From contig CM020618.1 in the NCBI GenBank assembly GCA_009829735.1, positions 16,849,346 to 16,913,345 on the forward strand: DNA of 64,000 nucleotides, given 5' to 3'. Under the pieces are notes generated by a model, which was not told the origin of the DNA, did not search any database, and worked only from the letters and a program-made list of their open reading frames with translations. Shown here in pieces: positions 733 through 33,994 of this stretch. This DNA is from Pyropia yezoensis. Lineage: Eukaryota; Rhodophyta; Bangiophyceae; Bangiales; Bangiaceae. The translations under genes were made by a program, and so were the position numbers. Numbering within the stretch: the stretch's first letter is position 1; each line of letters starts with the position of its first letter.

Positions 733-2849
733 ATGTCCAGCTCTGAGGTCCTGGTTGGGCCCGCGGCTCCGGCGGCGAGTGTTGCGGAGGAGAGTTCGGG
801 TGGCCTTGCCCCTCTCCTGCCTCCGGTTCCTCGGATGTCGGTGCCGGCGCCGGTCGTCACGGCGGAGACGGATCGAGTGCCCCCGGCTTCAGCGTCGCGC
901 CCGGTCGAGGCCTCGCCGGCGGGTCTCCCGGAGATGCTTCTTGGGCAGGATCCTCTGGCGGCCCGGCGCTCCTCCACGGTGGTCGGCAACGCCAGCGCGG
1001 CCCAGTGCCAGCAAGATTGTCTGGTCATCTGGCGCAAGGAACTCCAGCGCGGGGTCTTGACGGAGATGGACAAGACGCGTCTCCACGTGGCGGACCAGAT
1101 GCGCCTGGCTCAAGACCGCTCCCAGAGCTTTTCGGGTTCCTCTTGGGTTGCCCGTCTGGAGGATCTCCCCTTCGCGCTGGTGCTGGATCTTTCCCTGACC
1201 GAGCGTCGCGTGTCTGCGTCCGTTCTCCGGTGGCCGGAGGAGGACGGTTACGTCCGTCGGGCGCTCCAGGTCTGGGACGAGGCGCTCAAGGGGTCGGGGA
1301 GTCTGAATTGTGACCCCCGTCCGAGCATGGTCGCTCTGGAGCCGCCGTTCTTGACCCGGAAGTACTTTATGTTGTCGCCGGCGCGGGAGCGAGGTGAGCG
1401 GCGTGGGCGCCGGCGGGACTACATCGCGAGCTGCAACCACCAGAATTCTCGAAGCTGGACAAGGCCAACTGGGCGGCGTACTACCCCAAGGTCATCCCGC
1501 AGCAGCAGGAAGTCGAGATCCCGGTCGGGTTTGCTCCGTCCAGCATCCCCTTTACGTGGTACTTCCTGAACGCCCTGACCTAGGCGTCGATCAAGGGCTT
1601 TTTCCATTCCATCCCGTACATGATGTACACCTCCGAGATGACGGTCTTGGCTGCCAACCACTGGCTCCACGAGGTCTTGGTGTCTAACCGGCTCTGGCTT
1701 CTCCCAGACCTCATGATGGTCTGGATCGTCAACAAGCTGACCGTCGACTTCCTGTGCAGCCAGGACGAGGAATAAAAGGAGCGCTTCCAGGCGATGATCG
1801 ACTTCCGGCGTCAACTCCCGGTGCATGACCGGAGCTTCTTGAATCTGATTGCCGACCAGAACAGCCCGCATCGGGATGGCCCGGGTTGTGTGCAGGTGGT
1901 CTACCAGTCTTCTCCGGCCAAGGTGCAGCTGGCGACGCCGCTGCCGGCGTGGCCGCGGCTGGGAGGTCTTCCTGCGCCGGCCGCTCTGGATCCTCCGCCG
2001 ACTGGGCCGCCGGTGCAAGAGTCGGGATGGGCCGCGGCGGTCGGTCGGGCGTCTGCAGCGGCTCAACTTCCTCCAGCTGCGCCTGTCGCACCCGTTGCTT
2101 CGCCTTTGCCGTCGCCGGCGCGTGTGCGCCCAGCTCTACCTGTACCGGTGCTCCAGGCTCCTCCGGCACCGCGCTTGTCTGCTGCGGCTCTTGGCGTTGT
2201 CATCCGGTCGCCAACTACTCCGGTCGTTCCTCCTCGAGGGCCTTCTACGGTGGGCGTTGGCTCGGTGCCCACCCTCGAATTGGGGACTCCTGTTTCCGGC
2301 GCCGCTGCTAGCCGTCCGGGTGTGGCAACCTCGGGTCGGATCGAGATCCCGGCGCCGACTCTGCGCCTTTCCCGCGTTCGGGTGCCCGACTGGTACCTAA
2401 CCTAAGGTGGCCCGGCGTGTGACCAGTATGACGTCGGCATGATCGAGGACCAGCTGGGCCGTCATCCGGTGCAGGTCGAGGACATCGGGTCTCCCTTGGT
2501 GCTGGGCACGTATGCCAGCATCCTGAACGACGTGGTTGACCAGGTGTTTGCTAGCGCGGATAGCGGCCAGATGTCGGACAGTCCTGTGGTTGGGGAGCTT
2601 TTGGCAGCCTTGACCCGGCATGGCTTGGCCCAAAGTTGGTCGAGGACCTTCACTAGCTTCCAAGGGCGCCGGCAGGCGTATCTGGAGGAGCGGGAGCGCC
2701 CGGCGAATACTGGTGCTGTTCCGATGGTGGAGTACGTGGAAGCGCCTCGCCCGCCGCACTACGTCATCCCGTCGTCCTCTGGGTCCCGTCGTGTTGCGGA
2801 GGTGGCGCTGGAGGACGCTCCCGCGGCGCAGAGTCCGCGCCGGGAGTAG
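733..2849 (+). pseudogene. Antisense gene of element A (family 1), broken copy
   Basis: Plus-strand relative of the intact antisense gene in element B (7500-9617), starting at the equivalent ATG (MSSSEV...). It lies between the 3' LTR and the end of pol, opposite in sense to gag-pol. Long blocks match B closely, for example the stretch with ELQRGVLTEMDK and the one with SQSFSGSSWVARLEDLPFA, and the C-terminal block with YDVGMIEDQLGR. Many of the differences from B fall at third codon positions. About three breaks. Function unknown; no retroelement domain recognised. Confidence 0.8.
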
Positions 2850-7499: not shown

Positions 7500-9617
7500 A
7501 TGTCCAGTTCCGAGATCCAAGCTGGGCCCGTGGTTCCGGCGGCGAGTGTTGCGGAGGAGAACTCGGGTAGTCGCGCCCCTCTCCTGCCTCCGGTTCCTCG
7601 GGTGTCGATGTCAGCGCAGGTCGCCACGGCGGGGACGGATCGGGTTCCCCCGGCTTCTGTGATGCACCCGGTCGAGACCCCCCCGGTGGGTCTCCCGGAG
7701 ATGCTTCTTGGGCAGGATCCTCTGGCGGGCCGGCGCTACTCCACGGTGGTCGGCAACGCCGGCGCGGCCCAGTGCGAGCAGGATTGCTTGGACCTCTGGC
7801 GCAAGGAACTCCAGCGCGGGGTCCTGACCGAGATGGATAAGGCTCGTCTTCACACGGCGGACCAGATGCGCCTGGCACAAGACCGCTCCCAGAGCTTCTC
7901 GGGTTCCTCTTGGGTTGCTCGTCTGGAGGATCTCCCCTTCGCGCTGGTGCTGGATCTACCCTTGACCGAGCGTCGCGTGTCCGCGTCCGTTCTCCGGTGG
8001 CCGGAGGAGGAAGGGTACGTCCACCGGGCGCTCAAGGTCTGGGACGAGGCGCTCAAGGGGTCGGGGAGCCTGAACTGCGACCCCCGTCCGAGCATGGTCG
8101 CTCTGGAGCCGCCTTTCCTGACCTGGAAGTACTCCAAGTTGTCACCGGCACGGGAGCAAGGCGAGCGACGCGGTCGTCAGCGTGACTTCCTCGTGAGCTG
8201 CAACCATCAGGAGTTCTGGAAGCTGGATAAGGCTAACCGGGCGGCGTACTACCCCAAGGTCATCCCGCAGCAGCAGGAAGTCGAGATCCCGGTCGGGTTT
8301 GCTCCTTCCAGCATCCCCTTCACCTGGTACTTCTTGAACGCCTTGACTCAGGCGTCGATCAAGGGCTTCTTCCACTCGATCCCGTACATAATGTACACGT
8401 CCGAGATGACAGTCTTGGCGGCCAACCACTGGCTTCACGAGGTCTTGGTGTCCAACCGGCTTTGGTTTCTCCCTGACCTCCTGATGGTCTGGATTGTCGA
8501 CAAGTTGACCGTCGACTTCCTGTGCAGCCAGGACGAAGAGTACAAGGGGCTCTTCCAGGCGATGATTGACTTCCGGCGTCTGGTGCCGGTGCATGACCGG
8601 AACTTCTTGAACGCGATTGCTGACCAGAACCGCCCGCGTCGGGATGGCTTCGGTTGGGCGCAGGTGGTCTACCGGTCTTCTCCGGCCAAGGTGCAGCTGG
8701 CGACGCCGCTTCCGGCGTGGCCGCAGCTAGGTAGCTTTCCTGCCCCGGCCGCCCTTGATCTTCTGCCAGTTGGGCCGCCGGTGCAGGAGTCGGGATGGGC
8801 CGCGGCGGTCGGTCAGGCGTCTGCGGCGGCTCCGCTTCCTCCTGTTGCACCTATCGCCCCGGTGGCCTCGCCTGAACCGTCGCCGGCGCGTTTACGCCCT
8901 GTTCCGGCTGTACCGGTACTTCAAGCTCCTCCGGCACCGCGCCTGTCTGCGGCGAGGCTGGGGGTGACTGTGCGGTCGCCTACCACTCCGGCCGCTCCGC
9001 CTCGGACGCCTTCTTCCAACGCCGGCGGCGCTGTGCCTCCGCTGGAGTTGGGTACTCCGGTTTCGGGGGCCGTTGTGGACCGTCCGGTGGTGTCATTCTC
9101 GGGGCGGTTCGAGATTCCGGCGCCGACTCAGCGCCTTACCCGCTTCCGGGTGCCTGACTGGTACCTGAACCAAGGTGGCCCGACATGCGACCAGTACGAC
9201 GTCGGTATGATTGAAGACCAGCTGGGTCGTCTTCCGGTGCAGGTTGAGGGCGTCGGGTCTTCCCTGGTGCTGGGCACTTACGCCAGCGTCTTGAACAACG
9301 TGGTTGACCGGGTGTTTGCTTGCGCGGACAGCGGCCAGATGTCGAACAGCCCGGTGGTTGGCGAACTTCTGGCGACCTTGACGCGGCATGGCTTGGCCCA
9401 GCAGTGGTCAGAAACCTTCACTGGCTTCCAGGGGCGCCGACGGGCATATCTGGATGAGCGGGAGCCCCCGGCAACTACCGGTACTACTCCGATGGCGTCA
9501 TACCGGGATGCACCGCGTCCACCGCACTACGTCATCCCGTCTTCCTCCGGTTCCCGTCGTGCCGCGGAGGCAGCGCTGGAGGACACTCCCGCGGCTCAGC
9601 GTCCGCGCCGGGAGTAG
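7500..9617 (+). CDS. Antisense gene of family 1, intact, unknown function (705 aa)
   Basis: Open frame of 705 codons on the plus strand, opposite to gag-pol, between pol and the 3' LTR. I chose the ATG at 7500 (MSSSEI...) because element A keeps the same start; an upstream ATG at 7308 lies inside the LTR. Three parts show: a conserved block at about residues 60-395 rich in aromatic and charged residues, a Pro/Ala-rich linker at about 395-545, and a second block at about 545-670 (YDVGMIEDQLGR...), then a Ser/Pro/Arg tail. I see no signal peptide, transmembrane segment, Cys/His finger or retroviral motif, so it does not look like an envelope. The strand opposite has no frame over about 165 codons here. 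Antisense extra ORFs are known in some plant LTR elements, but I cannot match this protein to any. Inference: it regulates or assists the element. Confidence 0.85.
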   Translation: MSSSEIQAGPVVPAASVAEENSGSRAPLLPPVPRVSMSAQVATAGTDRVPPASVMHPVETPPVGLPEMLLGQDPLAGRRYSTVVGNAGAAQCEQDCLDLWRKELQRGVLTEMDKARLHTADQMRLAQDRSQSFSGSSWVARLEDLPFALVLDLPLTERRVSASVLRWPEEEGYVHRALKVWDEALKGSGSLNCDPRPSMVALEPPFLTWKYSKLSPAREQGERRGRQRDFLVSCNHQEFWKLDKANRAAYYPKVIPQQQEVEIPVGFAPSSIPFTWYFLNALTQASIKGFFHSIPYIMYTSEMTVLAANHWLHEVLVSNRLWFLPDLLMVWIVDKLTVDFLCSQDEEYKGLFQAMIDFRRLVPVHDRNFLNAIADQNRPRRDGFGWAQVVYRSSPAKVQLATPLPAWPQLGSFPAPAALDLLPVGPPVQESGWAAAVGQASAAAPLPPVAPIAPVASPEPSPARLRPVPAVPVLQAPPAPRLSAARLGVTVRSPTTPAAPPRTPSSNAGGAVPPLELGTPVSGAVVDRPVVSFSGRFEIPAPTQRLTRFRVPDWYLNQGGPTCDQYDVGMIEDQLGRLPVQVEGVGSSLVLGTYASVLNNVVDRVFACADSGQMSNSPVVGELLATLTRHGLAQQWSETFTGFQGRRRAYLDEREPPATTGTTPMASYRDAPRPPHYVIPSSSGSRRAAEAALEDTPAAQRPRRE

Positions 9618-9762
9618 TAGTTGGAGGCAAGGAGGGTGAGGGTCTTGGGAGAAGCGAGGAGGGAAGAGGCGGAGAGAAGGGTTGCCCGAGCGGGTGCTCG
9701 TTTTCCTTGATTGTTCCATGCTTGTATTGCGTGTTCTCCTTGATATACTCGTTCCCTTCTTC
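9618..9762. other. Convergent gap between antisense gene and pol in element B
   Basis: Holds a purine-rich stretch just after the antisense stop and a pyrimidine-rich stretch before the pol stop, the same layout as in element A. Short enough that the two transcripts probably overlap at their 3' ends. No terminator or poly(A) signal can be named with confidence. Confidence 0.45.
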
Positions 9763-12700
9763 TCAATCCTCTTGTTCCGCATCCGTTGCGGATGAACTCG
9801 GCTCGTCCCGAGGGTCTTGGTTGGCCCCATCCTCTTGGTCCTCCTCCGAGTCCGACTCCAGAATCTTGCCGGCTCTGGCCACTGGAGTGCCCTCTATCCC
9901 GTTCTGTCGCGTGTAGGCACAGACATCCGCGATGGGTAGCCGGTTTGAGGGTTCCCAGGTATCATCTGCCGGGTTAAAACCGAACCAGCGTACTCGCAGG
10001 TACAGGCGTCCGTCTCTCCAGGCATGGTCCACAAACTTGACGTAGACATATTCCCGACCTTCTTGTTGGGATAGCCAGGGTACTGCGGCCCGCTTGCGCC
10101 GGGTCAAGTCCCGTTGGCTTGGCGGTGGAGCTCGGGTGACATGGTCGCTGCTCACGCGGTACGGGGTGCTATCCACGTCTAGAAGAAAGGTCCAACCGTC
10201 CGTATTCAGGATCTCAAAAGGTCCATCCGTCTTCGAGTCCAGCTTCCCCCGGGTCTTGCTATGGTTGTCCACAAAAACCCAGTCGCCACCACCCAGTTCC
10301 TTGTTCTTTTCCCGAACGCCCTTGTCATAGCCCCGCTTGTATCGCTCCTGGGTCTTCGAGATTGACTCCTTGACTCTTGGGAGCAGGAGCTTCAGTTGTT
10401 CCAGGAACTCATCCTTTGCCTTGGGACCTGACTTCAGTGCAGGCTGGAGACCGTCTGGTATTCTTTCCAGGGAGAAGTTGGTCAGCCGCCTTGGGGTGAC
10501 AAAGTCGAGTGGAGCGACCCCCGTTGTCCGGTGAACTCGGGAGTTGTAGGCTAGAGTGAGGACAGCCAGGAGCTCGTCCCAGTCTTCTCGGTGCTCCTCC
10601 ACGTAGTGCCGTAGCATGTCTACTAGGGTCCGGTTGAATCGTTCCACCTGGCCGTTCGTTTGAGGGTGGTACGTCGTAGTGTACAAGTTCTTGATGCCCA
10701 TCAGGTCACAGACTCCTTGGAAGAACAGGGATGCAAACTGGGGACCGTTGTCGGTTAAGACGGAGTCTGGAGGGCCGTAGGCAGCTATCCAGTACTCGCA
10801 GAAGGCTGACGTGACATCCAGAGCCGTGATGGTCCTCAGCAAGATTGCTCGAGTGAACATGGAGAGCCGGTCACATATGATGAGCAGGTATATGTTGCCA
10901 CTGGATGTTTCAGGTAGGGGCCCCAGGATGTCCATGCTTAAGCTTGCAAAGGGCTCCGCCGCAGGGAATACGCGTAGCTTAGAAGTCTTCTTCCTCTGGG
11001 ACAACCGGTTCCTTGCACACGAAACACAAGCCTCCAGGTACTTATGGACGTCACTGGCCATGGTTTCCCAGTAATAGTGTCGTCTCATGGAAGCATACAT
11101 CCGATGGATACCAGGATGTCCGGCCTGGGGAGACGAGTGCTCCAGGCGTAGGATGTCAGCTCGTAGGCCCCGGGGTACGTAGACTTGAGTGGCCCCATCG
11201 AAGGGTGACACCCGTACTAGGAGTCCGTCCGTAGACTCGGAGAAACGACTGTTCCGGTTCAGGTCCATTTGGTGGCGAAGCTCCAAGCAATAAGGATCCG
11301 TTAGCTGTGCCTCCAGCATCCGGTGAATGGTTACCGGCTGGTGCGCTTCAGGTGACTCATTCAAAGGAGCATGCCAGCCACGTCCGACATTTGGGAGGAT
11401 GAAGCAAGGTATTTCCTCCGGGATAGGACCGGTATCGGCTGCAGGAGTCTCCAGCCGGGACATGGTGTCGGCGCAGTGGTGCTCCCTCCCTGCTCTGGTG
11501 CACACCTTGTACTTGAACTCCGAAAGGCGTAGGCGCCACCGGGCGACCCTTCCTTGACTGCTGTCCATGCATAGCAGCCACCTTAGACTGGCATGATCCG
11601 TCCGGATGAGGAACTCTTGTCCTTCAAGATATGGCCGTAACAGGAAGCAAGCCCAGACGACTGCCAAGCACTCGCGCTCCGTCGTGGAATAGTTCTTCTC
11701 GGCTGGAGTCAAGACGCGACTGTAGTAGCCTATCGGGAGGAAGTGCCCATCAGGTTGCTGCTGGAGTAGTGAGCACCCCACCTGGACGCCACAGGCGTCA
11801 GTCTCTAGAACAAACTGGCCCTCCCGCTTGGGTAACGCCAGTACTGGAGTGGTGGTCAGGCGCTTCTTGAGCTCTTCGAAGGCCGCGGTCTGCTTCTCGT
11901 CGAACACCGGGAGTTGTGCGGGAAGCTTCTTGCTGGTAAGCTTGGTCAATGGCCGGGCAATCAGAGCATAGTCCCGTACAAACCGGCGATAGACGTTGCA
12001 CATACCCAGGAAGCTTTTGAGTTCCGTCTGGGTTTTGGGTTGTCGTGCATGCCGGAGGGCCTTGATGTTTTTCTCATTGACTCGGAGCTCCCCCGGACTC
12101 AGCACGTGCCCCAGATACTCCACCTCAGTCTCAAACAGGTGGCACTTCTCGGCCTTGAGGGTAACTCCAGCCTTGGACAGGAGGGCCAGGACCTCCCGAA
12201 GGTGCTCCAGGTGTTCCGCTGGGGTCTTGGAGAGAACGATAATGTCGTCCAGGTAGACCAAACATGTTCTCCACCTTAGCCCGGACAGGATTATGTCGAT
12301 GGCTCTTTGGAAGGTTGCCGGAGCATTGGTGAGACCAAAAGGAAGACGATTGCACCGGAATAGTCCCAGGTGGCACGTGAAGGTGGTCTTGTCCTTGTCC
12401 TCGTCAGCCAGAGGGATCTGCCAGTATCCGGCATTACAATCCAGCGTTGAGAAGAGGGTGGCATCACCAAGAAAGTCGAGGCAATCATCCATCCGGGGTA
12501 TCGGGTATACGTCCTTGACTGTCATCTCGTTCAGGCGCCGGTAGTCAACGCAGAAACGGAAGTGACCGCCGGTTTTCGGGACGACTACCACCGGGAAAGC
12601 CCACTCGCCATCAGACGGCTCGATAACATCCATCTTGAGCATCTTGTTAACCTGCTTCTCAATCTCATTCCGGCGATGAGGTCCGGCCCGATATGGTTGC

Positions 12701-13722
12701 ATGTGCACTGGCTTAGCTTCCGGCTTGAGTTGAATCCGGTGTAGAGTGGCGTCCATCTTGCCCAGCTCTCCCGACCACAGGTGCTGATATTCCTGGAGAA
12801 GCTTCTCCAGTGCCTCCTTCAAGTCGAGAGGGACATTTTCTTGGTTGACCTTCGGCATCCCGGGTGGTGCTTGATCGGGTTTCGGAGTAGCGCTGCCAGC
12901 CTGCTCTTGTTTCGGAGGTACGTCTAAGGCCGTCAAGTTGGATGCCAGTTCGTGTTGCAGGTTCAGGAGGTCTTCCTTGCTCATAGCACGGGCGGATCCC
13001 CGGTAAGGTTCTGCTTTTCCAACTCGAGTGCTCTTAGCGAGAGTTATCGGTTTCCGGCTCACGTTGACGACTAGCACCGAGAATGGGGTACGCCTTTCCA
13101 CCTTCTTGTGATGTCCGTGGGCCAAGTATAACCGGTGTTTCGCCAGAAATCCCTTACGTCCGTAGATCAGGCATTGACCTGCAATCCGGGTCGTTACTTG
13201 AACCTTGGTCTCCGAGCGAGGAGGTAGGAGCACCGGTTTGAAGAGAGTCAAGGTAGAGGGTGGGATGCGTTCCCTCTTGCTCTTGGCTACACGAACCTTG
13301 GCGTCCAGATGCTCCAATACCGGTGACACAAACCCATGGTTGAACTGGACCTTCCCTTCTCCGGGTAGGATGCTCTTGACATGCTGCTTCTGGAAGTCCC
13401 AGCCTAGGATGAGGGGGACTGACAGGGCCTTGACTACCAGAAAGGGAAATAGCATTGGTTCATTGTTGACATAGATGGCGACAGGAAGACGGCCAAGCGG
13501 TCGTAGGGTTTGACCCGAAGCGTCGACGATATGGGTCCGGGTAGGCGCTCTCCAGGCATGTCGACGCCAGCCCGGAGGTAACAGGTTCTCAGTGATGACG
13601 CTTGGTCCGGCTCCCGTGTCAACCACCGGCGTAACAGATTGGGGGAGGCTATCCCCCACACGCATACGAACATTAATCTTGAGGTTTTCTTTACGCAGGA
13701 CGAGCAATGTCCCCTTGAACAA
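9763..13722 (-). CDS. pol: pol polyprotein of element B (protease-RT-RNase H-integrase-chromodomain)
   Basis: About 1319 residues. Aspartic protease with DTGAG at residues 35-39; reverse transcriptase at about 310-530 with LPFGLTNAP and YLDD (490-493); RNase H at about 630-755 with TDAC, TEREC and RTDH; integrase with the His/Cys zinc region at about 860-902 and the catalytic triad seen as D931, D991 (TDNGPQF) and E1027 (NGQVERFN); C-terminal chromodomain at about 1220-1275 (EYVYVKFVDHAW...RVRWFGFNPADDTWEP). Order RT-RH-IN plus chromodomain places it in the chromovirus branch of Ty3/gypsy. The frame has no early ATG and lies in the -1 phase relative to gag, slightly overlapping its end, fitting the programmed frameshifting the group is known to use. 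Copies DNA from the RNA genome and integrates it; the chromodomain probably steers it to modified histones. Confidence 0.96.
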   Translation of the reverse strand: MFKGTLLVLRKENLKINVRMRVGDSLPQSVTPVVDTGAGPSVITENLLPPGWRRHAWRAPTRTHIVDASGQTLRPLGRLPVAIYVNNEPMLFPFLVVKALSVPLILGWDFQKQHVKSILPGEGKVQFNHGFVSPVLEHLDAKVRVAKSKRERIPPSTLTLFKPVLLPPRSETKVQVTTRIAGQCLIYGRKGFLAKHRLYLAHGHHKKVERRTPFSVLVVNVSRKPITLAKSTRVGKAEPYRGSARAMSKEDLLNLQHELASNLTALDVPPKQEQAGSATPKPDQAPPGMPKVNQENVPLDLKEALEKLLQEYQHLWSGELGKMDATLHRIQLKPEAKPVHMQPYRAGPHRRNEIEKQVNKMLKMDVIEPSDGEWAFPVVVVPKTGGHFRFCVDYRRLNEMTVKDVYPIPRMDDCLDFLGDATLFSTLDCNAGYWQIPLADEDKDKTTFTCHLGLFRCNRLPFGLTNAPATFQRAIDIILSGLRWRTCLVYLDDIIVLSKTPAEHLEHLREVLALLSKAGVTLKAEKCHLFETEVEYLGHVLSPGELRVNEKNIKALRHARQPKTQTELKSFLGMCNVYRRFVRDYALIARPLTKLTSKKLPAQLPVFDEKQTAAFEELKKRLTTTPVLALPKREGQFVLETDACGVQVGCSLLQQQPDGHFLPIGYYSRVLTPAEKNYSTTERECLAVVWACFLLRPYLEGQEFLIRTDHASLRWLLCMDSSQGRVARWRLRLSEFKYKVCTRAGREHHCADTMSRLETPAADTGPIPEEIPCFILPNVGRGWHAPLNESPEAHQPVTIHRMLEAQLTDPYCLELRHQMDLNRNSRFSESTDGLLVRVSPFDGATQVYVPRGLRADILRLEHSSPQAGHPGIHRMYASMRRHYYWETMASDVHKYLEACVSCARNRLSQRKKTSKLRVFPAAEPFASLSMDILGPLPETSSGNIYLLIICDRLSMFTRAILLRTITALDVTSAFCEYWIAAYGPPDSVLTDNGPQFASLFFQGVCDLMGIKNLYTTTYHPQTNGQVERFNRTLVDMLRHYVEEHREDWDELLAVLTLAYNSRVHRTTGVAPLDFVTPRRLTNFSLERIPDGLQPALKSGPKAKDEFLEQLKLLLPRVKESISKTQERYKRGYDKGVREKNKELGGGDWVFVDNHSKTRGKLDSKTDGPFEILNTDGWTFLLDVDSTPYRVSSDHVTRAPPPSQRDLTRRKRAAVPWLSQQEGREYVYVKFVDHAWRDGRLYLRVRWFGFNPADDTWEPSNRLPIADVCAYTRQNGIEGTPVARAGKILESDSEEDQEDGANQDPRDEPSSSATDAEQED

Positions 13723-13739
13723 ACTGGGTGTCCAGGCGG

Positions 13740-15611
13740 CTACCGGTTGAGCAGGTAACCGCCGTCCTTTCTCCCGGCACGCAAGGTGAGAACAGGTAGA
13801 AGTTCCCTGCCGTTGGAGGTTCGGGAAGACACTTGGGGAGAGCGCCTGCCCAACTCGCTTCCCGGGTCCGAGGAGTCCTTAGAGGTTTCGGTCTCCAGGT
13901 CAAAGTCCGTAGGAGCTTCCCTTGCCAGAGCCTCCGTGATGCTCTGTAAGGTCGCCACTCGGATTGCGTGTACCTGTGCCTGGTCCATCTTGGAGGGTGC
14001 TCGCCGGTCAGCCCAGTTGACCGCCTTTGCAAACACCAGTCCTTGACGCTTGAGTTTCTCCTGGAGGTCCTTAGGAATGGTCGGGCACTGGTAGGACATG
14101 TGATCCTCCTTCTGGCACAGCCAACAAGACCGGAACCGCTGGTTCTTGACTTGCTTGGGGGCGACCAGGGATAGTTGCTCCTTGGAAACGAAGCCGCCCC
14201 ACTTTTCCCCTGACCCCCTGGGTGAGGCCTCGCCAACTGCGAGTACCGGTACAGGGCTATCACCTCCCTTATACTTGTCGGGTCCGGGTCGAACTCGCGA
14301 CAACGGCTTGGAAGTTGATACCATGGGAGCTTGGAGGGCCCTGGCTTGCCGGTAATTGCCCTGGGTGTAGGCCATCAACTGCTGGAAGGTATTTTCTTGG
14401 TGTTCCTGGTTGTAATTCTCCGCATCCACTTGAAGATATTCAGGAAGCCCTTCCGAGAAGATCATCTTGAGCTGGTCCTCAGGGTAAACGTTGCCACAAG
14501 CATCGCTCATCTCCCGGACACGACGGGCAAACGCCTCTGGAGTCTCTTGTCTTTCCATGGTTGCCCGGTTCAGCCTGCCGACTGCTTTACGCAGAGAGTC
14601 CGCGTCAGCGTAGTTGGACAGGAGCCAGTTGACCGCCTCCGGATAGCTCCCAACGGTACGTCCGACAATGTGTCCGGCAGAGTCTGGTAGAACCTGTGCA
14701 AACCGCTGTTCCGCTTCTCTGGTCATGAAGTTAACCAGGAGGTAGAGAGCCTTGCCCTCGGACACATCGTTGTCATTGCATGCCTTGACAAACCGGCGCA
14801 GGAAGGCAAAGATAAGCGCCGGTCTCATCCCGGAAAACTTAGGATGTCCCCCGAAGCTCGGCTGCATTCGTCGGTTCAGGGACGCCATCTTCTTGGCCAT
14901 CTTCCGGGTGTAACCTTGGTCTTGGTTCTCCAGCCGGTAGTTACCCCAATACGTGACCTTGTTCAGGGTGGCATCTCCTACTTGGTGGGCAGGGAAGTCA
15001 AACTCGACTAGCCTGCGCCGGGTGGGACCGGGAGATGCATCCCAATCATATCCCTCCTCAGAGCTGGAGGAACTGGTCTCGCTGGTGCTAGAGCGACGGC
15101 GATGACGCCGACGCCTTCGGCTGCTCCGGGTACCGGTCCTGGAGCTCCCCGCTCCATAGGATGCAAGGGGAGGGAAAGCTTGGCCGGTCCCAGGAGTCGA
15201 GGTCTCAGGGAGACCCGTAGAACCAGTCACAACGGTGCCTCTGGCATCGCTAGTGCCCACAGGAAGAGGTGTATACACCCAGCTGCCATGTGTGGGTCCA
15301 GGAGTAAACACACCAGGGGCTATCCCTGGAGGTTGAGGAGTAGAACCGACAGGAGGGAGACGTCTGCTGCGAGCGGACTCAAACGCTGTTGACCCCGGGG
15401 TGGCTCCCACAGGAGGAACAGCCGGAGGAGCGGGAGCAGGTGGTGCTTGGCCGCCTGTGGACTCCAGTCCGCTACCGGATGTCACACCCAGGTCTGCATC
15501 ACCCGTAGGGAGAACGCCGGGTTGGGCACCGCACCCCGCGGTGACCAGGGATGCATCAAGGGACGCGAAGTCTTCCCCTTCGGGCACCGTCGTGCCAGGG
15601 AGGGTAGCCAT
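13740..15611 (-). CDS. gag: gag structural protein of element B (623 aa)
   Basis: Start set at the first ATG of the frame (15611, MATLPGTTVPEGEDF); element A keeps the same start. Residues 1-230 are Pro/Ser/Thr-rich and end in an Arg-rich and Ser-rich patch. The middle (about 240-420) resembles the retrotransposon gag capsid domain (FLRRFVKACNDNDVSEGKALYLLVNFM... and EAFARRVREMSDACG). A zinc knuckle of the CX2CX4HX4C type (CWLCQKEDHMSYQC) lies at about residues 494-507 and should bind the element RNA. Forms the cytoplasmic virus-like particle in this family. The leader from the LTR to this ATG is about 210 bp. Confidence 0.95.
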   Translation of the reverse strand: MATLPGTTVPEGEDFASLDASLVTAGCGAQPGVLPTGDADLGVTSGSGLESTGGQAPPAPAPPAVPPVGATPGSTAFESARSRRLPPVGSTPQPPGIAPGVFTPGPTHGSWVYTPLPVGTSDARGTVVTGSTGLPETSTPGTGQAFPPLASYGAGSSRTGTRSSRRRRRHRRRSSTSETSSSSSEEGYDWDASPGPTRRRLVEFDFPAHQVGDATLNKVTYWGNYRLENQDQGYTRKMAKKMASLNRRMQPSFGGHPKFSGMRPALIFAFLRRFVKACNDNDVSEGKALYLLVNFMTREAEQRFAQVLPDSAGHIVGRTVGSYPEAVNWLLSNYADADSLRKAVGRLNRATMERQETPEAFARRVREMSDACGNVYPEDQLKMIFSEGLPEYLQVDAENYNQEHQENTFQQLMAYTQGNYRQARALQAPMVSTSKPLSRVRPGPDKYKGGDSPVPVLAVGEASPRGSGEKWGGFVSKEQLSLVAPKQVKNQRFRSCWLCQKEDHMSYQCPTIPKDLQEKLKRQGLVFAKAVNWADRRAPSKMDQAQVHAIRVATLQSITEALAREAPTDFDLETETSKDSSDPGSELGRRSPQVSSRTSNGRELLPVLTLRAGRKDGGYLLNR

Positions 15612-15801
15612 GTTGGTCTCTTGACAGCCACAGTCCAGTTGCCTGCGTGTCCAAAGATCGCCAGACCACAAGAGAGGGGTTGGAGAGCCAGGAATGGGAT
15701 TCCCGTGAACGGGTGCAAATAATTCCCAAACCACCGAAAAAGACAGAACAGGAACAACCCAACCGCTGCTCCCAAATGTCTCTTCTCAAACACTCCAATC
15801 A

Positions 15802-15823: not shown

Positions 15824-16394
15824 TGTGCTATAAAACTCGATCCTCTCAGACACGTGTCAATATCCCTCGGGGGAAAGGGACAGGTACCACAGAAAGGGGA
15901 ACTACGAGAATGGTATGCCTGTTGCCTCACGTGCCTGCTCGCAGAGCAAACAGATACGCACGGTAGTGCACACGGGGAAGAGGAAAGCAAACGCGCAGTT
16001 GTCTTTTTCCTGAGGGCGCGGGCCAAGGGCGCCTCGCTGTCCCTCTTAACGTGCATCTGCGGGAGCCTCGGCACGTTGGCCAGGTAGCCCCCCCATAACC
16101 CCGAGTGGCCCCGACCCGAGTCTAACCTCGTCAGGTCGGGGGCCACTATCACTACTAATTCTATTCCCACCCACTAATCTCACACTCAAATTCTCTCAAA
16201 TCAAGTCCCTCACAAGTATGCAAAAACCCATCAGAAATCCCTCTCTCACGTGTGGATAGCGTAATCCACCGCATCCCAGTGCCCGGCACGGGCCACGGCC
16301 GCCAACCATCACCACACGGCGGGCGTGTTCTGGCACCTGGTGCCCTCTGGTTGTAGTCCCGGGTCGGCGCCAAGTCGGGGCCCGGGATGCTACA
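15824..16394 (-). repeat. 5' LTR of element B (family 1, 571 bp)
   Basis: Same ends and length as 6745-7315. The target duplication ggttt follows at 16395-16399 and the interrupted protease sequence of element A resumes there. Confidence 0.96.
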
Positions 16395-19591: not shown

Positions 19592-21979
19592 ATGTCAGAC
19601 CCCCAGGTGCCCGGAGGCACGGACGACCTCCTGCTTGAGGAGGAGGAGGTGATGCAGGACGAAGCGCCCTTCGCTGCTACCGCCGCCGAGTGCTTCCTCG
19701 CTTGCTCGTCGGAGGACTCCGGGGACCGTGTCACCGTCCGCGTGTCGGCGGCGGGTCCACCGGGCGGGCTGTCGTCCGTGTGCAGCGGAACGACGGCGCC
19801 GTCGGTGGGCGGTCAACCGTGTGTGTCGATTCCTCTTCCTACTCCTCCGGCTGCCCGGATGGGCCCTGTCGCCTGTGCCGGCGCGGCTCTTTCGCCTGTG
19901 CCGGCGCGGCTCTTTTTAAAGATTGGGCAGCCGCTGCTGTTGATATTCGGAGCGGCGCCCAGGCCGGTGCGGCGGGGCAAGATGGTGCGGGTACCCGCCC
20001 GGTAGGTGCTCCGGACGCGGGGGTGGTTGAAGGGCCTGTCCCATCCGTCGCCTTTGTGCCCTCTTCGGGCCGGGGTAGAGGTGATGCACTTCCCGCGGAT
20101 CGGCGGGCTTTTGTCAGTCAAGACGTACCTTCCCCGATGGCTGTGGACTCCGGGAACTACTCCGGGCGGGTGCCCGCCCTTCTTCTTCCTCCGCGTTCCC
20201 GTGCGCCTGCGGCGCCAGCCCATCTGCCGGTGGGGCTTCCCCCGGTGCCGACGATCCTTCCCGGGCCGGCCCGGGTTCCCCCGCTGGGTGGCGGCGTCGC
20301 CTTGTTGGTGGGACACCCCCCTATGTCGGTGTCCGACTTGGTGGCTCGGGTTCGTGGCCTTACCGTTCAAGAGCCCATGGACTCTGCTGGCCGGATGCGG
20401 GTGGAATTCCACCCGCCGAGCCACCGTGGAGGCTCCTTCCTTCGAGTCAAGCTGGAACCGTGTTGGGAGCGGGAGTTGGCGCGGCTGGTCAACCAGCCGA
20501 ATGCGGTACGTGTTGTGCATCATTGGATACTGAGTCAGCCAGACGACCGGCATGCCTAACTCTGGCGCACCGTGTCGGGCGGGGTGAGGTCTTCCTCAAC
20601 CCCGCGTTAGGAATACACGACTTGGCTGCTACCGCGTTGGCGCCGGACGTTGACTACCCGGCTAGTGCTCGGGGGGTTGCGGCTTCTGTGACCCCCGCTG
20701 CATCCGGGCAGACCGTGTTCGATACCAACCGGTATCCCGGGTTTGAGTACTTCCCGGAGATATCCCCGTATTTGACGTTGACGGCGCCGTACCCGCCCAT
20801 GGCTAGGCTGAAGTCGGCGTCGAGCTGGCGTCGCAACCATGGTGGTATGGCGGATGTGTTCCGCACCGACATGACGTGTGTGTTGCAGACCGGTAGCGGT
20901 CGCGCGTCAGTGTACACTCTAGTGCGCCCGCCTCTATGGCAGGAGGGGTGGGAACCCGCCCGGCTTTCCAGTTTGACACCGGCTGATGCCTCCGATACTT
21001 CGGTAGCGTGTTGGCCTCTCTGCCTGTCCACCCGTTGCAGAGGACCTTAACACTGGAGGATACCCTCGGGCAGGCTTCCTCTTTCCTGTTGTACGTCCGT
21101 CCGCAGGGTCGGCTGTTTCATCTTCCGACGGGTGTCCGTCGGCATATTGGGCAGCTGGGCGTTGACATAATTGCTGCTAAAACGGGGTTGGCCCGTGAGG
21201 TCGAGGCCCTCTTGGCTGTTCACGATGCCGTGAACGGGGCGGAGTTGTTGAACCTACCCCCGTATCGGGACCCGCAGGCTGGGGCTGTCCCCTTGCCCCG
21301 TCGCTCGTTACGCATCCAGCGCACTCAGCCGGGTGAGCCTAGTTACCGTGGGTGGGTGTCCACCGAGGCTGTTCCTGCCCTGGGTATTCCCATGGTTATC
21401 CATGACCTTCTTCAGGTCAAAGCCCCATGGTTCGGTTATCCGATACCGGTGGGGGCTGATCGTCGTCGCCGTCGGTGGGACTCTACGGGTGGGGAGCGTG
21501 AGATGTCCCGTCGTCGGGCGGACTCCCGCCGGGTTTACGGTGGTGCCCCTTCCATGGGGTCTTACCGTGCCTCGTACCGGGCGGCACCGGCTCCGGTGGT
21601 AGCCGTCTCGGCTCCTGCGGCTCCTCTGGCCGCGCCGGTACCTAATTCTGCCCCTGTCATGCCGGACGGGGGTCCCCGTCTATGGTGTGAGGGCGTTGAC
21701 GCCCTCATCACCCGCGAGCTGCGGGAAAGTCTATCAGTTAGCTGGGGGGATATCCCCCCAGGTGCTGCGCTGGTTGGTACCGCGCGCTGCTTCGGTGGTG
21801 TACTAGACCGCATCCGGCTAGCCCTGGAGGAGGTGGAGGCTGGTCGCAGCACTCTCGTGGAGCTATGCACTGAGGTAACTCAAGCGGTTGACCGTCATGA
21901 GATTGCCGACCGGTGGAGTATGGAAGTGTACACGTCTTCGCATGAGTGGCCTCCTTCGGCGAGCGGGAGTACCCCCTGA
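19592..21979 (+). pseudogene. Antisense gene of element C (family 2), broken copy
   Basis: Relative of the intact antisense gene in element G (31625-33994). It starts at the same ATG (MSDPQVPGGTDD), has the same acidic N-terminus, Pro/Ala-rich stretch, long middle block (for example ELARLVNQPNAVRVVHHWILSQPDDRHA and LTAPYPPMARLKSASSWRRNHG) and C-terminal block (ALVGTARCFGGVLDRIRLALEEVEAGRSTLVELCTEV in part). About three breaks. A local doubling of a 25-bp unit is visible near 19.87-19.92 kb. Function unknown. Confidence 0.85.
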
Positions 21980-26599: not shown

Positions 26600-29500
26600 T
26601 CCGCCCACCTCGCGTAGGAATCCCCAAGAACGTAAACCCACGTCGGGTCATCGCGGTGCTGACGGGTGAGAACTTTCAGGCGGCTGGACGGGTGCAACCA
26701 GCCCCCGGCCGTGCCTGTTGTGCCCGTATCGTACTTGACACCGGATCAGGAGCCTCTTTGATACGCAAATCGCTATCACCGAAAGAGATGAAGCTCCAAC
26801 GCTAGAGGTCTAAGGCCGACCATATGATTGACATCAATGGTGGGGTACTTCCCATTGTTTGTGCCTTGACCCTACCAACTAGGTTGGGAACCCATGAGGT
26901 CGACGTGACCTATGGAGTAGTCGAGAGTATATGGGTACCCCTGCTTCTGGGTACCCCTTATGTTGTAACACAAGTGCCTCTGACTTGTGGCCCGGAGTAT
27001 TGGGTCAAGCTGAGGAATGGGGAGACTGTCCCCATCCTTGTTAAGGGAATGTCTGTGGCTCCTGTGATAGTCTCACAGTCGACGCCTGTTTGCTCCGTGA
27101 GAGAAGGGCTTACTGCTACTCTGCGTTTAGCCCGTAAAGTCACGTTTCCTCCCAACTTGGTGGCGCACGTTGACGTTGTCACTGATCATACGGGGAACGG
27201 GTTGGTGCACCTTAACCCCCGCCTTGCTCGTAAGCACCAAGTGCATGTTGCCCTTGGCACGATGGACTCCAAAGCCGGAGTCCCGTGGAGGATCCAGGTG
27301 ATCAACTTGAGCTCGTCGCCCAAGTACTTCAAGTCGGGAGCCAAGTTCGGCTATATCGACCAACATGAGGGCCCAGTAGTAGCGGTAACCCTCAACGCGG
27401 GCGCGTGTTGCGACCCGAAGTCCGGAAAGGAGAAGCACCAAGCCAAGCCGGCCGCCTCTCCTCGACCCCACGTGAACATGGAGAATGTTCCACCCAGGTT
27501 GAGGGTTCAAGTTGAACGCCTCTTGGACCAATATCACAAGTTGTGGGATGGTCAATTGGGACTCATGAGAGCCAACCAACACCGGATCGAGTTGAAACCC
27601 GGTGCACCCCCTATACGCCAACAACCGCATAGGGGAGGGCCCCGTTCAAGGGCCCTCTTCAAGGAGCAAGTCGCTCGCATGGAGGCCCTTGATGTGATTG
27701 AGGCCAGCAACGCCGAGTGCGCGAGTCCGGTGGTCATTGTCCCCAAAGCTGATGGGACCCCACGGTTCTGTATCGACTACCGTAAGCTCAACGAGAGCAC
27801 GGTGAAGGACAGTTATCCCCTCCCTAGGGTGGACGACTGTCTGGACTCTCTGCGGGAGGCAAACGTGTTCTCTACCCTAGACTGAAGCGCGGGGTACTGG
27901 CAAATTCCCATTGCCCCGGAAGACTGGCATAAAACTACCTTAACCTGTCACTGTGGTACCTGCCAGTGCAAGCGACTACCGTTTGGACTGTGCAACGCGC
28001 CGGCATCTTTCCAGCGCGCCATGGACATGATCCTGGCCGGAGTACGGTGGCAGATCTGTCTTGTGTACCTAGACGATATCATTGTGTTCTCCCGAAGTCC
28101 GGAGGAGCACATTGGCCATCTTGGCCAGGTGTTCAAGCTACTTGCTGACGCCGGTGTTTCACTGAAGGCGAGCAAGTGCCACCTCCTCACTCAGGAAGTG
28201 GAACACTTGGGACATGTTGTCCGTCCGGGGCGCCTCAGTGTCAATGAGAAGAACTTGAGAGCCATCCGTAAGGCTCAGTATCCCCGGACTCAGACCGAGA
28301 TAAGGAGCTTCCTCGGGATGTGCACCGTGGACAGACGTTTCACCAAGAGCTTCGCCAACGTGGCAAAGCCGCTGAATGAGCTAGTTAGCTCGACGTTACC
28401 GAAGAACGTGCCTCCCCCAAGTCGGGTGGAGCAGGAACCCTTTCAGACTCTTCGGGACCTACTGCTGAAGCCCCCCATGATGACTATTCCCAGGTTGGGA
28501 CGCCACTACATCTTAGCCGTGGATGCTAGCTACGACGAACTTGGCCGTGTGTTGCTTCAGCAGCAGCCGGACAAGGAGTACTTGCCGGTGGGATACTTCA
28601 GCAAGGGGCTGAACTCGGCTGAGAAGAACTATGGAGTCTCCGAGTTGGAAGGACTCGCAGTGGTATTGGCGGTGACGTCACTTCGTCCCTACCCAGAGGA
28701 TGAGAACTTCCTCATCCGCTGTGACCACCGCGCGTTGCAGTTCATCTTTAAGACGGACTGTACGAAAACTCGTCTCAACCGGTGGAGGGTGCGACTGGCA
28801 CCCTTCAACTTTGATATTGAGTACCGACCTGGCAGGCAACATGCCCTTGCCGACGACCTTTCTCGGGTACCTACCGAGGGGCTGGACACTAAATCAGTCG
28901 ATGAGGACATCCCCATCGTGGGGGTAGTCTCGCGCTCGGGTCAGGCGTTGGACCCCGAGGCGCCAGGGAGCAAGAAGTACTTGCCCCAGTCCCTGGACGA
29001 GGTGGTGAAGGCCCAGGCCGAGGACCCCTTCTGCAAGTCGCAGAGGGATACGCTGGATACAGTGGCGGAGACGCGGTTCTTTATCGGAGACGATGGCCTC
29101 CTCATGAGGAGGGGGGGAATTCAGTGGACTGAACAAATTGTCGACCCCGTATCCCGCAAGGACAGTATCCTTGAGAGGGAGCATAACGCTCCCACAGGTG
29201 GACACCTGGGGTCTAGTACTCTGTACCAGACCCTGAGGACCAGGTACTACTGGCCGTCCATGGTGGTGGACATCTACAGTTGGGTGGCTGCCTGCACAAG
29301 ATGTGCGCAGAACCGTCTGATGGAACGGCGGCCTACTACGGCTATGTTACTGCTCCCGGCCAAGGAGCCCCTTGCCGCGTTGGAAATGGACATCCTAGGG
29401 CCCCTGCCAGTGACAGAAGATGGCAATCAGTACCTCCTGGTCATCTGCGATCGCTTCACGAAACTTACGCGAGCGATCCCTCTGGCAGAGATCACGGCCA

Positions 29501-30103
29501 TGTCGGTCGTGTCAGCCTTCCTAGATCATTGGGTTCCCGCGTATGGCGTCCCGGACAGTACACTATCGGACAATGGACCGCAACTTGCGTCCGTACTCTT
29601 TCAGGAAGTGCTGGATATGTTCGGTGGTCAGGCAAACTATGCCACCCCCTATCACCCCCAAACTAATGGGCAGGTGGAGCGCTTCAACGAAACTGTTTTT
29701 CGGCAGCTGCGCCACTATATGAGTGAGCACGTGAAAACGTGGGACCAATACATTTCTATTCTTACGACCGCCTACAATTCGCAGGTTCACTCATCTACCG
29801 GGGAAGTACCCCTCGCTTTTGTGACCCCTCGTCGCATGTGGTCTATTGCCGTACAGCCGCCGCTCCCAAGTAGGGAGGCCGATGGCAGTACACCCATTCC
29901 GACTGAGAGTAAGGCGGAGTTCGCTGCTAGGCTCGAAAGTCTCATCCCTAAAGTCAGGGCTGAGATGGACAAAGCGCAAAAGCGCTACAAGCGTACTATT
30001 GACAAAAATGGTGCGTAACGCCAAGCATGTCCCCGAGCAGGGTGACTGGGTACTGGCTCACTCACACACCCCAACTGTGGGTGAGTTGGTCTTGCAGACG
30101 AAG
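26600..30103 (+). pseudogene. pol: pol of element D (family 3), protease to integrase
   Basis: Aspartic protease motif LDTGSG near 26.73 kb; reverse transcriptase with FCIDYRKLNESTVKDSYPLPR near 27.8 kb and YLDD near 28.07 kb; RNase H with AVDASYDELGRVLLQQQ and IRCDHRALQ near 28.5-28.7 kb; integrase zinc region near 29.2-29.3 kb (HLGSSTLYQTLRTRYYWP ... CTRCAQNR) and core near 29.4-29.7 kb (MDILGPLPVTEDGNQYL, SDNGPQLAS, NGQVERFN). The chromodomain end lies at 54244-54621 on the far side of element E. About three breaks. Most similar in layout to pol of family 1, but clearly a different family. Confidence 0.93.
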
Positions 30104-31624: not shown

Positions 31625-33994
31625 ATGTCGGACCCCCAGGTACCCGGGGGCGAGGACGACCTCCTGCCTGAAGAGGGGGAAGAGGTGATGGTGGACGACG
31701 TTCCCGTCTCCGCCACCGCCGCGGAGTGCTTCCTAACGAGCTCGTCGGAGGACGAGGACGACCGGGTGACCGTTCGTGTGGCTCCGGACGGCGCGCCGGG
31801 CGGGTTGTCGTCCGTGTGTAGCGGCACGACGGCTCCGTCGGGTGGCGGACAACCGCGTGCGGCGGTGGCTTCTACCGCTTCTCCTCCGGCGGCCCGGATG
31901 GCTGATGTCGCCGGTACCGGCGTGGCTCTACCTCAAGACGGTGTCGCCGGCGTGGCGGATGGTGGTGTTGGCACCCCGTCCAGTCCGGCGGGTCAAGACG
32001 GCGCGGGTGCCCGCCCGGTTGGTGTGTCCGCTGCGGCGGGTAGCGGGTCTACCCGTGCTGCCCCCGTGGTACCCACGTCGGGTCCGGGTGGCGGCGATGC
32101 TCTGCCCGCGGTGCCGCGGGCGTCTGGTGGTCAAGGTGGGTCTACACCGATGGCAGTGGACTCCGGTAGTTACTCCGGGCGGGCGCCCGCCCTTCTTCTT
32201 CCTCCTCGGCCGCGTGCGACTCCGGCGCCGGCCCCTCTTCCGGTGGGGCATCGCCCGGCGCCCCCTATTCTTCCTGGTCCTGCCCGGGTTGCCCCGTTGG
32301 GTGGCGGCGTCGCCGTGGCGGCGGGTCAACCCGCCATGTCGATGTTCGACTTGGTGGCTCGGGTTCGAGGCCTGACTGTGCAAGAGTCAATGGAGTCCGA
32401 TGGGCGGATGCGGGTGGACTTCCACCTGCCCCATCCCCGTGGAGAGTCCTCCCGGCGCGTCAAGGTGGACCCGAGTTGGGAGCGGGAGTTGGTGCGGCTG
32501 GTCAACCAGCCGAACGCGGTGCGAGTGGAACACCATTGGATCCTGAGTCAGCCGGACGACCGGCATGCGCAGCTCTGGCGTACTCGGGTGGGACGGGGTG
32601 AGGTCTACCTCGACCCCGCCTTCGGGGTATGCGACCTGATTGCTCCCATGTTGCCGCGGGAGGTTGACTACCCGGCTAGTGCTCGGGGGATTGCGGCGGC
32701 GGCGGAGCCGGTTGCGTTTGGGGAGACGGTGGGCAGTATCGGTTGGTATCCCGACTTTGATTACTACCCGGGGGTATCCCCGTATCTGTCGTTGACGGCC
32801 CCCTACCCGCCTATGGCGGGGTTGAAGTCGGCGTCGAGCTGGCGACGTAACCATGGTGTCATGGCGGATGCGTTCCGCACGGATATAACGTGTGCGTTGC
32901 AGACCGGCAACGGTCGTGCGCCGGTATACACTCCCGTGCGCCCTCCTCTGTGGCAGGAGGGGTGGGAACCCGCCCCTGCTTTCCGGTTTGACACCGGCTC
33001 CTGTCTCCGATACTTCGGGAGTGCGTTGGCCTCCCGGCCGGTCCACCCGTTGCAGGGTACCTTCACCCTTGAGGTTACCCTCGGGCAGGCTTCCTCCTTC
33101 TTGCTGTCCGTCCGCCGGCAGGGGCGCCTGTTTCATCTTCCGACGGGTGTCCGTCGGCACATCGCGCAGTTGAGCGTGGACCTGATAGCTGCCAAGACCG
33201 GGTTGGCCCGGGAGTTCGAGGCCCTGCTGGCTGTTCACGATGCCGTGAACTGGGCTGGGGTGTTGGCCCTTCCCCCGTACCGGGACCCGCAGGCTGGGGC
33301 TACCCCCTTGCCTCGTCACTCGTTGCGTATCCGGCGTACTCGGCCGGTTGAGCCTAGTTGCCATGGGTGGGCGTCCACCGAGGCCGTTCCTGACCTGGGT
33401 ATTCCCATGGTTATCCATGACCTTCTTCAGGTCCTTACCCCGTGGTTCAGTAACCCGATACCGGCGGCGGTTGGCCGTCGTCCCCGAGAGTGGGGCTCTG
33501 CGGGTGGGGAGCGTGAGGTGTCCCCTCGTCGGGCGGAGCCCCGCCGGGGTTACGGTGGAGCCCCTTCGGTAGGGTCCTACCGAGCCTCGTATCAGGTGCC
33601 ACCGGCTCCGGTGGTAGCCGTGTCGGCTCCTGTGGCTCCTCTGGCTGCGCCAGTGTCACCTTTCGCCCCTGTCATACAGGACGGGGGTCCCCGTCTCTGG
33701 TATGAGGGCGTTGACGCCCTTGTTGCCCGCGCAATGCGGGAGGGTCTCTCTGTTAGCTGGGGGGATATCCCCCCAGGTGCTGCGCTGGTTGGGTCAGCGC
33801 GTTGCTTCGGTGGTGTGCTTGACCGCCTCCAGAAAGCTCTGGAGGACGTGGAGGCTGGCCGCAGCACCCTCGTTCAGCTATGCACCGAGGTAGCTCGGGT
33901 GATTGACCGTCGTGAGATTGCCGACCGTTGGAGCACGGAGGTATACGCGCTTACGCGTGAGTGGCCTCCCTCGGGCAGTGGGTCTACCCACTGA
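31625..33994 (+). CDS. Antisense gene of family 2, intact, unknown function (789 aa)
   Basis: Open frame of 789 codons on the plus strand, opposite to gag-pol of element G. I chose the ATG at 31625 (MSDPQVPGGEDDLLPEEGEE), shared with elements C and E. Residues 1-50 are strongly acidic and Ser-rich; about 60-235 is Pro/Ala/Gly-rich; about 237-600 is a long block with conserved Trp, Tyr and Arg (MSMFDLVARVRGLTVQ..., ELVRLVNQPNAVRVEHHW..., WQEGWEPAPAFRFDTG...); about 685-775 is a second block (SVSWGDIPPGAALVGSARC...). No transmembrane segment, zinc finger or enzyme motif that I recognise. Its plan of disordered acidic N-terminus plus two folded blocks resembles the family 1 antisense protein in outline, but I cannot align the two by eye. 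It could be a regulator, a particle accessory protein or an acquired host gene. Confidence 0.85.
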   Translation: MSDPQVPGGEDDLLPEEGEEVMVDDVPVSATAAECFLTSSSEDEDDRVTVRVAPDGAPGGLSSVCSGTTAPSGGGQPRAAVASTASPPAARMADVAGTGVALPQDGVAGVADGGVGTPSSPAGQDGAGARPVGVSAAAGSGSTRAAPVVPTSGPGGGDALPAVPRASGGQGGSTPMAVDSGSYSGRAPALLLPPRPRATPAPAPLPVGHRPAPPILPGPARVAPLGGGVAVAAGQPAMSMFDLVARVRGLTVQESMESDGRMRVDFHLPHPRGESSRRVKVDPSWERELVRLVNQPNAVRVEHHWILSQPDDRHAQLWRTRVGRGEVYLDPAFGVCDLIAPMLPREVDYPASARGIAAAAEPVAFGETVGSIGWYPDFDYYPGVSPYLSLTAPYPPMAGLKSASSWRRNHGVMADAFRTDITCALQTGNGRAPVYTPVRPPLWQEGWEPAPAFRFDTGSCLRYFGSALASRPVHPLQGTFTLEVTLGQASSFLLSVRRQGRLFHLPTGVRRHIAQLSVDLIAAKTGLAREFEALLAVHDAVNWAGVLALPPYRDPQAGATPLPRHSLRIRRTRPVEPSCHGWASTEAVPDLGIPMVIHDLLQVLTPWFSNPIPAAVGRRPREWGSAGGEREVSPRRAEPRRGYGGAPSVGSYRASYQVPPAPVVAVSAPVAPLAAPVSPFAPVIQDGGPRLWYEGVDALVARAMREGLSVSWGDIPPGAALVGSARCFGGVLDRLQKALEDVEAGRSTLVQLCTEVARVIDRREIADRWSTEVYALTREWPPSGSGSTH

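What the first reader, a model, noticed from the sequence alone, without database searches (positions are those of the whole stretch)
7500..9617. A conserved convergent gene on the opposite strand between pol and the 3' LTR
Families 1, 2 and 3 all carry a second gene in the same place and always antisense to gag-pol: intact in B (7500-9617, 705 aa) and G (31625-33994, 789 aa), and as fossils in A (733-2849), C (19592-21979), E (50926-53286), D (54733-55442) and F (41054-42456). That is seven of the eight elements, in both orientations of the window. The proteins have no retroelement motif I recognise and no membrane segments, so they are not envelopes. Antisense extra ORFs are known from some plant LTR elements; a convergent gene of this size in three families sharing one genome is unusual. 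It may regulate, protect or target the element.
Basis: partly seen in the sequence, partly recalled or inferred. Interest (0 to 1): 0.88.

Follow-up and report, generated by a model that had tools for sequence, protein, structure and literature searches.

The report
Antisense accessory gene in algal retrotransposons
Three families of jumping genetic elements in the genome of an edible red seaweed carry an extra gene that runs backwards against their main genes; the gene is under selection and seems to come from one common ancestor, but its job is still unknown.

Summary
The window lies in the nori alga Pyropia yezoensis: scaffold sizes match the published assembly. All seven antisense ORFs (aORFs) lie at the stated coordinates, antisense to gag-pol.

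Tools add three things. (1) The aORFs of families 1, 2 and 3 (F1-F3) are distant homologues: F1-F3 39.7 bits and F2-F3 40.4 bits, against at most 27.3 and 28.5 in 1000 shuffles each. F1-F2 is linked only through F3. (2) In copies chosen by pol, or by another part of the gene, variants shared between copies show 0.19-0.35 of the neutral N/S and no stops; private variants show 0.68-0.76. Of six frames the aORF frame is best in each family. (3) Pyropia vietnamensis has proteins 44-57% identical to F2.

The elements are Ty3/gypsy with a sub-threshold C-terminal chromodomain match. The protein has no known domain and no membrane segment; its fold was not resolved.

The architecture is known (Grande, RIRE2, Retand, PvRetro13, Boty). 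New here: the protein family, the red-algal setting, and homology across families. A nuclear regulatory role is my best guess, untested. No transcript was examined.

The parts
7500..9617 (+). aORF of element B (family 1), 705 aa
6745..7315 (-). 3' LTR of B (571 bp), 184 bases from the aORF start codon; possible site of an antisense promoter (inferred)
15824..16394 (-). 5' LTR of B
9618..9762 (.). 145-nt gap between the facing stop codons of aORF and pol in B
9763..13878 (-). pol of B (stop-to-stop frame): protease, RT, RNase H, integrase, weak chromodomain
13740..15785 (-). gag frame of B (stop-to-stop), weak CCHC zinc knuckle
733..2846 (+). aORF fossil of element A (family 1)
31625..33994 (+). 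aORF of element G (family 2), 789 aa
34473..38745 (-). pol of G, in two overlapping frames; weak C-terminal chromodomain
19592..21973 (+). aORF fossil of element C (family 2)
50929..53286 (-). aORF fossil of element E (family 2)
41053..42453 (+). aORF fossil of element F (family 3, internal-deletion subfamily)
54736..55443 (-). aORF fossil of element D (family 3, C-terminal part)
26806..30018 (+). family-3 pol, perhaps of the element to which D belongs (inference)

Best explanation
The 7500-9617 ORF is a genuine protein-coding accessory gene of a Ty3/gypsy LTR retrotransposon with a chromodomain-like end. It lies between pol and the 3' LTR and is read on the opposite strand. The aORFs of the three families descend from one gene that was probably already in their common ancestor (homology and purifying selection are shown; the single origin with pol is inferred). 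It is probably expressed from an antisense promoter in or next to the 3' LTR (inferred) and makes a soluble protein with a Pro/Ala-rich, probably flexible N-terminal part, a conserved core of about 130-200 residues (helical in a weak model), and a family-specific C-terminal part that is Arg/Ser-rich in family 3. Most likely it acts in the nucleus as a regulator of the element's own transcription or chromatin state, comparable to the nuclear GENE23 protein of maize Grande (inferred). Selection against amino-acid change despite many sister copies suggests that it helps mainly the copy that encodes it (inferred). Odds: protein-coding gene under selection about 0.95; shared origin of the three about 0.9; nuclear regulator about 0.4.
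For: Coding and selected: shared variants at 0.21 (F1 by pol, 13 rows), 0.35 (F2 by pol, 5 rows) and 0.19 (F3 residues 1-390, 13 rows) of the neutral N/S, with no stops; private variants at 0.70-0.76. Best of six frames in each family. Pairwise dN/dS mostly 0.05-0.5. F1 pol shows the same pattern: shared 0.10, private 1.11. Shared origin: F1-F3 and F2-F3 scores above 1000 shuffles each; same position and strand. Conserved across species: P. vietnamensis relatives. Not an envelope: no membrane segment. F3 has NLS-like basic runs. Literature analogy: nuclear GENE23 with its own promoter (PMC7264820).
Against: No transcript, promoter or protein was seen. F1 and F2 show no NLS-like run by the pattern used. 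No domain or fold was identified. F1-F2 homology is not significant directly, and the profile matches that do appear have modest probabilities (52.8-72.8%). The family-4 element, closest to F1 in RT, shows no relative in the two degraded copies seen. Private variants also fall below the neutral ratio, so the two classes are not cleanly split. The F2 sample by pol has only 5 rows. A first estimate gave pN/pS 1.08 for the last 185 codons of pol in the aORF-chosen F1 loci.
Confidence: 0.5

Rival explanations
1. The protein antagonises host silencing (of dsRNA made by the two converging transcripts, or of chromatin silencing) and does not regulate the element itself.
For: The aORF mRNA would be complementary to the 3' part of the genomic RNA, so dsRNA is likely if both are made (geometry). 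The aORF has diverged far more than pol (22-26% against 40-47% identity), as expected of a protein in an arms race.
Against: Core regions change little among F1 and F2 copies (F1 201-400 ratio 0.10, F2 336-546 ratio 0.08). No small-RNA data were available.
Confidence: 0.2
2. It is a structural or particle protein (a second capsid-like protein or an envelope substitute).
For: Mostly helical weak prediction; large size; basic Arg/Ser-rich tail in F3.
Against: gag is present in B; no Pfam capsid or envelope match; no membrane segment. The model is too poor for a fold test.
Confidence: 0.12
3. The three families gained the gene by exchange or separate capture, not by descent with pol.
For: Family 4 is closer to F1 in RT (59%) than F2 (43%) or F3 (44%) are, and shows no aORF relative in the two degraded copies seen. 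No tree of aORF against pol was made.
Against: Same position and orientation in the three families; the three are about equally distant from each other in pol (40-47%) and in aORF (22-26%).
Confidence: 0.12
4. Only the antisense RNA matters, or the ORF is a by-product of GC-rich sequence; the protein has no role.
For: High GC (0.651 in the B aORF) favours long frames; long frames on the other strand occur in several F1 copies.
Against: Amino-acid-specific selection in three families, best of six frames, no stops among shared variants; relatives in a second species.
Confidence: 0.03

Closest known systems
Antisense additional ORFs (aORF-3R) of plant Ty3/gypsy elements: maize Grande GENE23, rice RIRE2, Silene Retand, PvRetro13 (PMC7264820, parts 1 and 2 of 3 read; PMC11963269, passages)
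   Same: Between pol and the 3' LTR, antisense, present in many copies, no clear relatives among known proteins, function unknown
   Different: Red algae, elements with a chromodomain-like end (Retand is a non-chromovirus lineage by PMC11963269), and no match to TRP28 (PF04195), which 97% of Retand clusters carry
brtn of Boty-like elements of the fungus Botrytis cinerea (named in PMC7264820; title of Zhao et al. 2011 seen in the reference list of PMC8365987)
   Same: An additional antisense gene in an LTR element outside plants
Antisense genes of human T-cell leukaemia viruses (HBZ, APH-2; passages in PMC7264820 and PMC11963269)
   Same: Antisense gene; HTLV has an antisense promoter in the 3' LTR; nuclear proteins
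   Different: Analogy only; no homology tested or claimed

Membership tests
aORF-3R (antisense additional ORF of LTR retrotransposons) | ORF between pol and the 3' LTR, antisense to gag-pol | tested here: met
   Position and strand in B with mapped LTRs; antisense next to pol in G and in family-3 loci
aORF-3R (antisense additional ORF of LTR retrotransposons) | Present in most copies of the family and conserved like other element proteins | tested here: met
   12 of 16 F1 loci chosen by pol hold the whole aORF, 4 hold a part; of 14 F2 loci, 12 hold the F2 or F2b form over most of its length, 1 a part, 1 none; shared-variant ratios
aORF-3R (antisense additional ORF of LTR retrotransposons) | Antisense transcript from its own promoter (known for Grande) | not testable with these tools
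   No RNA data were available
Retand-type TRP28 antisense protein | TRP28 domain (PF04195) | tested here: not met
   No PF04195 match up to E 1 in P0001, P0002 or the 10 members of A4
Chromovirus (chromodomain Ty3/gypsy) | Chromodomain at the C-terminal end of integrase | tested here: inconclusive
   Chromo E 1.3e-4 (F1), 0.016 (F2), 0.0018 (F3), all below the Pfam cut-off but all near the C-terminal end
Chromovirus (chromodomain Ty3/gypsy) | RT groups with chromoviruses in a tree | not tested
   No reference RT set was at hand
Retroviral-type envelope | Transmembrane segment | tested here: not met
   Highest 19-residue hydropathy 1.54 (F1), 1.60 (F2, in an Ala/Pro/Val stretch), 1.23 (F3)
Retroviral-type envelope | Sense orientation | tested here: not met
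   Antisense to gag-pol

The most novel reading that the evidence does not exclude
An ancient, vertically inherited antisense regulator, already present in the ancestor of the main Ty3/gypsy lineages of Bangiales red algae, acts preferentially on the copy that encodes it. It sets the balance between sense genomic RNA and antisense RNA, or shields the element from silencing, and is one reason why LTR elements fill much of the Pyropia genome.
Probability: 0.15. Interest if true: 0.75.

Novelty: new variant of a known kind. Interest (0 to 1): 0.52.

Why it matters
Antisense accessory genes are reported in flowering-plant and fungal LTR elements, with unknown function (PMC7264820). Here is one in red algae, with many copies, relatives in two species, and three element families whose proteins are homologous, plus a test that separates transmitted from decayed mutations. 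The conserved core (F1 about 230-362, F2 about 335-546, F3 about 95-319) is a defined target for structure and localisation work. The open question of what antisense retrotransposon genes are for becomes testable in a seaweed with a chromosome-level genome.

Full report
What is there. The window is C1:16849346-16913345 of a 107,475,971-base genome in 11 contigs. The three large contigs (43.6, 34.3 and 29.4 Mb) have the sizes of the three scaffolds of Pyropia yezoensis, the nori alga, as read in passages of PMC7423979. The same passages say that 48.0% of that genome is repeats, mostly LTR retrotransposons. Named relatives of the protein come from Pyropia vietnamensis.

Anatomy. Element B runs from 6745 to 16394 with LTRs of 571 bp that are 98.4% identical. 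It is flanked by GGTTT on both sides and sits inside element A. On the minus strand it has a gag frame (13740-15785) and pol (9763-13878) with protease, RT, RNase H and integrase, plus a sub-threshold chromodomain match at the end. On the plus strand, between the 3' LTR and pol, lies the 705-codon aORF at 7500-9617. The two stop codons face each other across 145 nt. In G (family 2) the gap is 478 nt; in the family-3 locus L033 it is 111 nt.

Other copies keep the frame. Searches with the protein list 63 F1, 57 F2 and 147 F3 (C-terminal 258 aa) matches, all lower bounds because only the best candidates are scored; 48, 43 and 143 of them have no stop inside. Since these lists are ranked by the aORF, I also chose F1 loci by the pol tail (150 matches listed) and fetched the adjoining stretch for 16, picked by hand. 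The whole aORF was present in 12 and a part in 4; 9 of the 12 had no stop, and 8 of these had no indel in the alignment either. For F2, of 14 loci picked by hand from 116 pol matches, 4 match G over the full length (3 of 4 without a stop), 8 belong to a second subfamily (F2b) that is about 91-92% identical over roughly the last 2060 bases with a diverged N-terminal part, 1 is partial and 1 has no match. Of the 8 F2b, 6 have open frames of 761-789 codons.

Selection. Variants carried by two or more copies must mostly have passed through replication; private variants include decay after insertion. For each class I compared N and S with the same base changes placed at random in the gene. F1 by pol (13 rows: B and 12 loci): shared S78 N34 stop0, ratio 0.21; private S81 N137 stop4, ratio 0.76. 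F2 by pol (5 rows: G and 4 loci): shared S36 N28 stop0, 0.35; private S50 N81 stop2, 0.70. F3 residues 1-390, in loci chosen by the C-terminal part (13 rows kept of 25; 9 with an internal deletion and 3 incomplete ones dropped): shared S69 N31 stop0, 0.19; private S54 N90 stop4, 0.73. Samples chosen by the aORF itself gave shared ratios of 0.26 (F1, S20 N11), 0.30 (F2, S14 N10) and 0.29 (F3 C-part, S42 N28), and private ratios of 0.52, 0.56 and 0.74. The C-terminal 449 codons of F1 pol gave shared S12 N3 (0.10) and private S37 N95 (1.11). Over all six frames of the region the aORF frame has the lowest shared ratio in each family and is the only one without stops among shared variants. The mirror frame on the other strand follows at 0.27-0.37, as expected from shared third positions, but the reference copy holds 14-25 stops in it. 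Pairwise dN/dS is 0.20-0.51 over five F1 pairs (0.20 for B against L058 and against L061), 0.38-0.45 for G against the six open F2b copies (last 480 codons), and 0.05-0.44 among 15 F3 pairs. By region the shared ratio is lowest at F1 67-200 (0.07, S16 N2) and 201-400 (0.10, S21 N4), and near neutral at F1 1-66 (0.86, S6 N13); F2 336-546 gives 0.08 but on S5 N1 only. Against this: the first estimate on 20 F1 loci chosen by the aORF gave pN/pS 0.27 for the aORF but 1.08 for the last 185 codons of pol. Private ratios below 1 show that the split into classes is not clean.

One ancestral gene. BLASTP with low-complexity filtering gives F1-F3 E 2.1e-6, F2-F3 8.1e-8, and F3 against the P. vietnamensis protein 1.2e-6; F1-F2 is 0.018. 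Against 1000 locally shuffled versions each, the real scores of 39.7 (F3-F1) and 40.4 bits (F3-F2) exceed the best shuffles (27.3 and 28.5); F1-F2 (24.6 bits) does not exceed its best shuffle (29.3). Profile comparison agrees but modestly: F1-F3 E 6.8e-5 at 63.5% probability, F2-F3 1.4e-4 at 52.8%, F1-F2 0.019 at 2.5%; with the P. vietnamensis proteins added, F2-F3 is 3.2e-5 at 72.8% and F1-F2 shows nothing. An F2 profile finds F3 at 14.0 bits, above all shuffled controls (best 5.6), while F1 does not stand out in the listed part. The matching region is F1 230-362, F2 335-546, F3 95-319. Pol identity is 43% F1-F2, 44% F1-F3, 40% F2-F3, so the aORF (22-26%) has diverged more than pol. The fourth family is 59% identical to F1 in RT and has no aORF relative in the two degraded copies seen: loss, exchange and decay cannot be told apart.

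What it might do. Pfam, PDB sequences and viral contigs gave no credible relative; protein searches found only Pyropia sequences or unnamed near-identical ones (two of the three searches scored only the candidates that share most words). The F2 AlphaFold2 model is poor (mean pLDDT 32.7, pTM 0.24); only residues about 721-770 reach 62-79, as helices, and the core helices about 50-60. The C-terminal helices match many unrelated helical bundles. There is no membrane segment, and F3 ends in an Arg/Ser-rich tail with NLS-like runs; F1 and F2 show none by the pattern used. A family-3 subfamily has lost residues 46-223, with a frame change between the old start and the core, yet it has several copies, and its remaining part still shows S15 N10 among shared variants, ratio 0.27 (9 rows). 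So the N-terminal part may be dispensable or supplied by others. My best guess, a nuclear regulator acting mainly for its own copy, rests on analogy with Grande GENE23 and with retroviral antisense genes as reviewed in PMC7264820 (parts 1 and 2 of 3 read) and PMC11963269 (passages). It is inference.

Comparison with the known. Antisense ORFs between pol and the 3' LTR are described for several flowering-plant families and for Boty in Botrytis, with unknown function. Retand ORFs carry TRP28, which was not found here. I therefore file this as a new variant of a known kind: a new protein family in red-algal elements, shared across three element families and with relatives in two species of one genus.

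Noticed in passing
window 6745-16394 within about 1-19283: Element B is inserted in element A, splitting A's pol/gag; 5-bp duplication GGTTT.
   Followed up: yes
window 30670-40294 and 44664-54239: Two family-2 elements (G and E) lie in opposite orientation and are 86% alike over 9.6 kb.
   Followed up: no
window 41053-42453; L021-L027, L029, L031: A family-3 subfamily lacks aORF residues 46-223, with a frame change, but several copies exist.
   Followed up: partly
L072, L073, L074, L076, L078, L081, L082, L084: A second family-2 subfamily (F2b) has a strongly diverged aORF N-terminal part.
   Followed up: partly
window 13740-13878: The gag and pol stop-to-stop frames of B overlap by 139 nt in different frames, so a ribosomal frameshift between gag and pol is possible.
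   Followed up: no
genome list: Many F1 pol tails share the same score (402.0 bits) and a 1371-codon open frame, as expected of a recent burst of one subfamily.
   Followed up: no
window 56899-62178 and L070: A fourth Ty3/gypsy family, with a relative about 70% alike at DNA level on the opposite strand in L070.
   Followed up: partly
window 63062-63811, minus strand: A 250-aa open frame without similarity to the aORFs, overlapping the end of an LTR-like stretch at 62622-63099.
   Followed up: no
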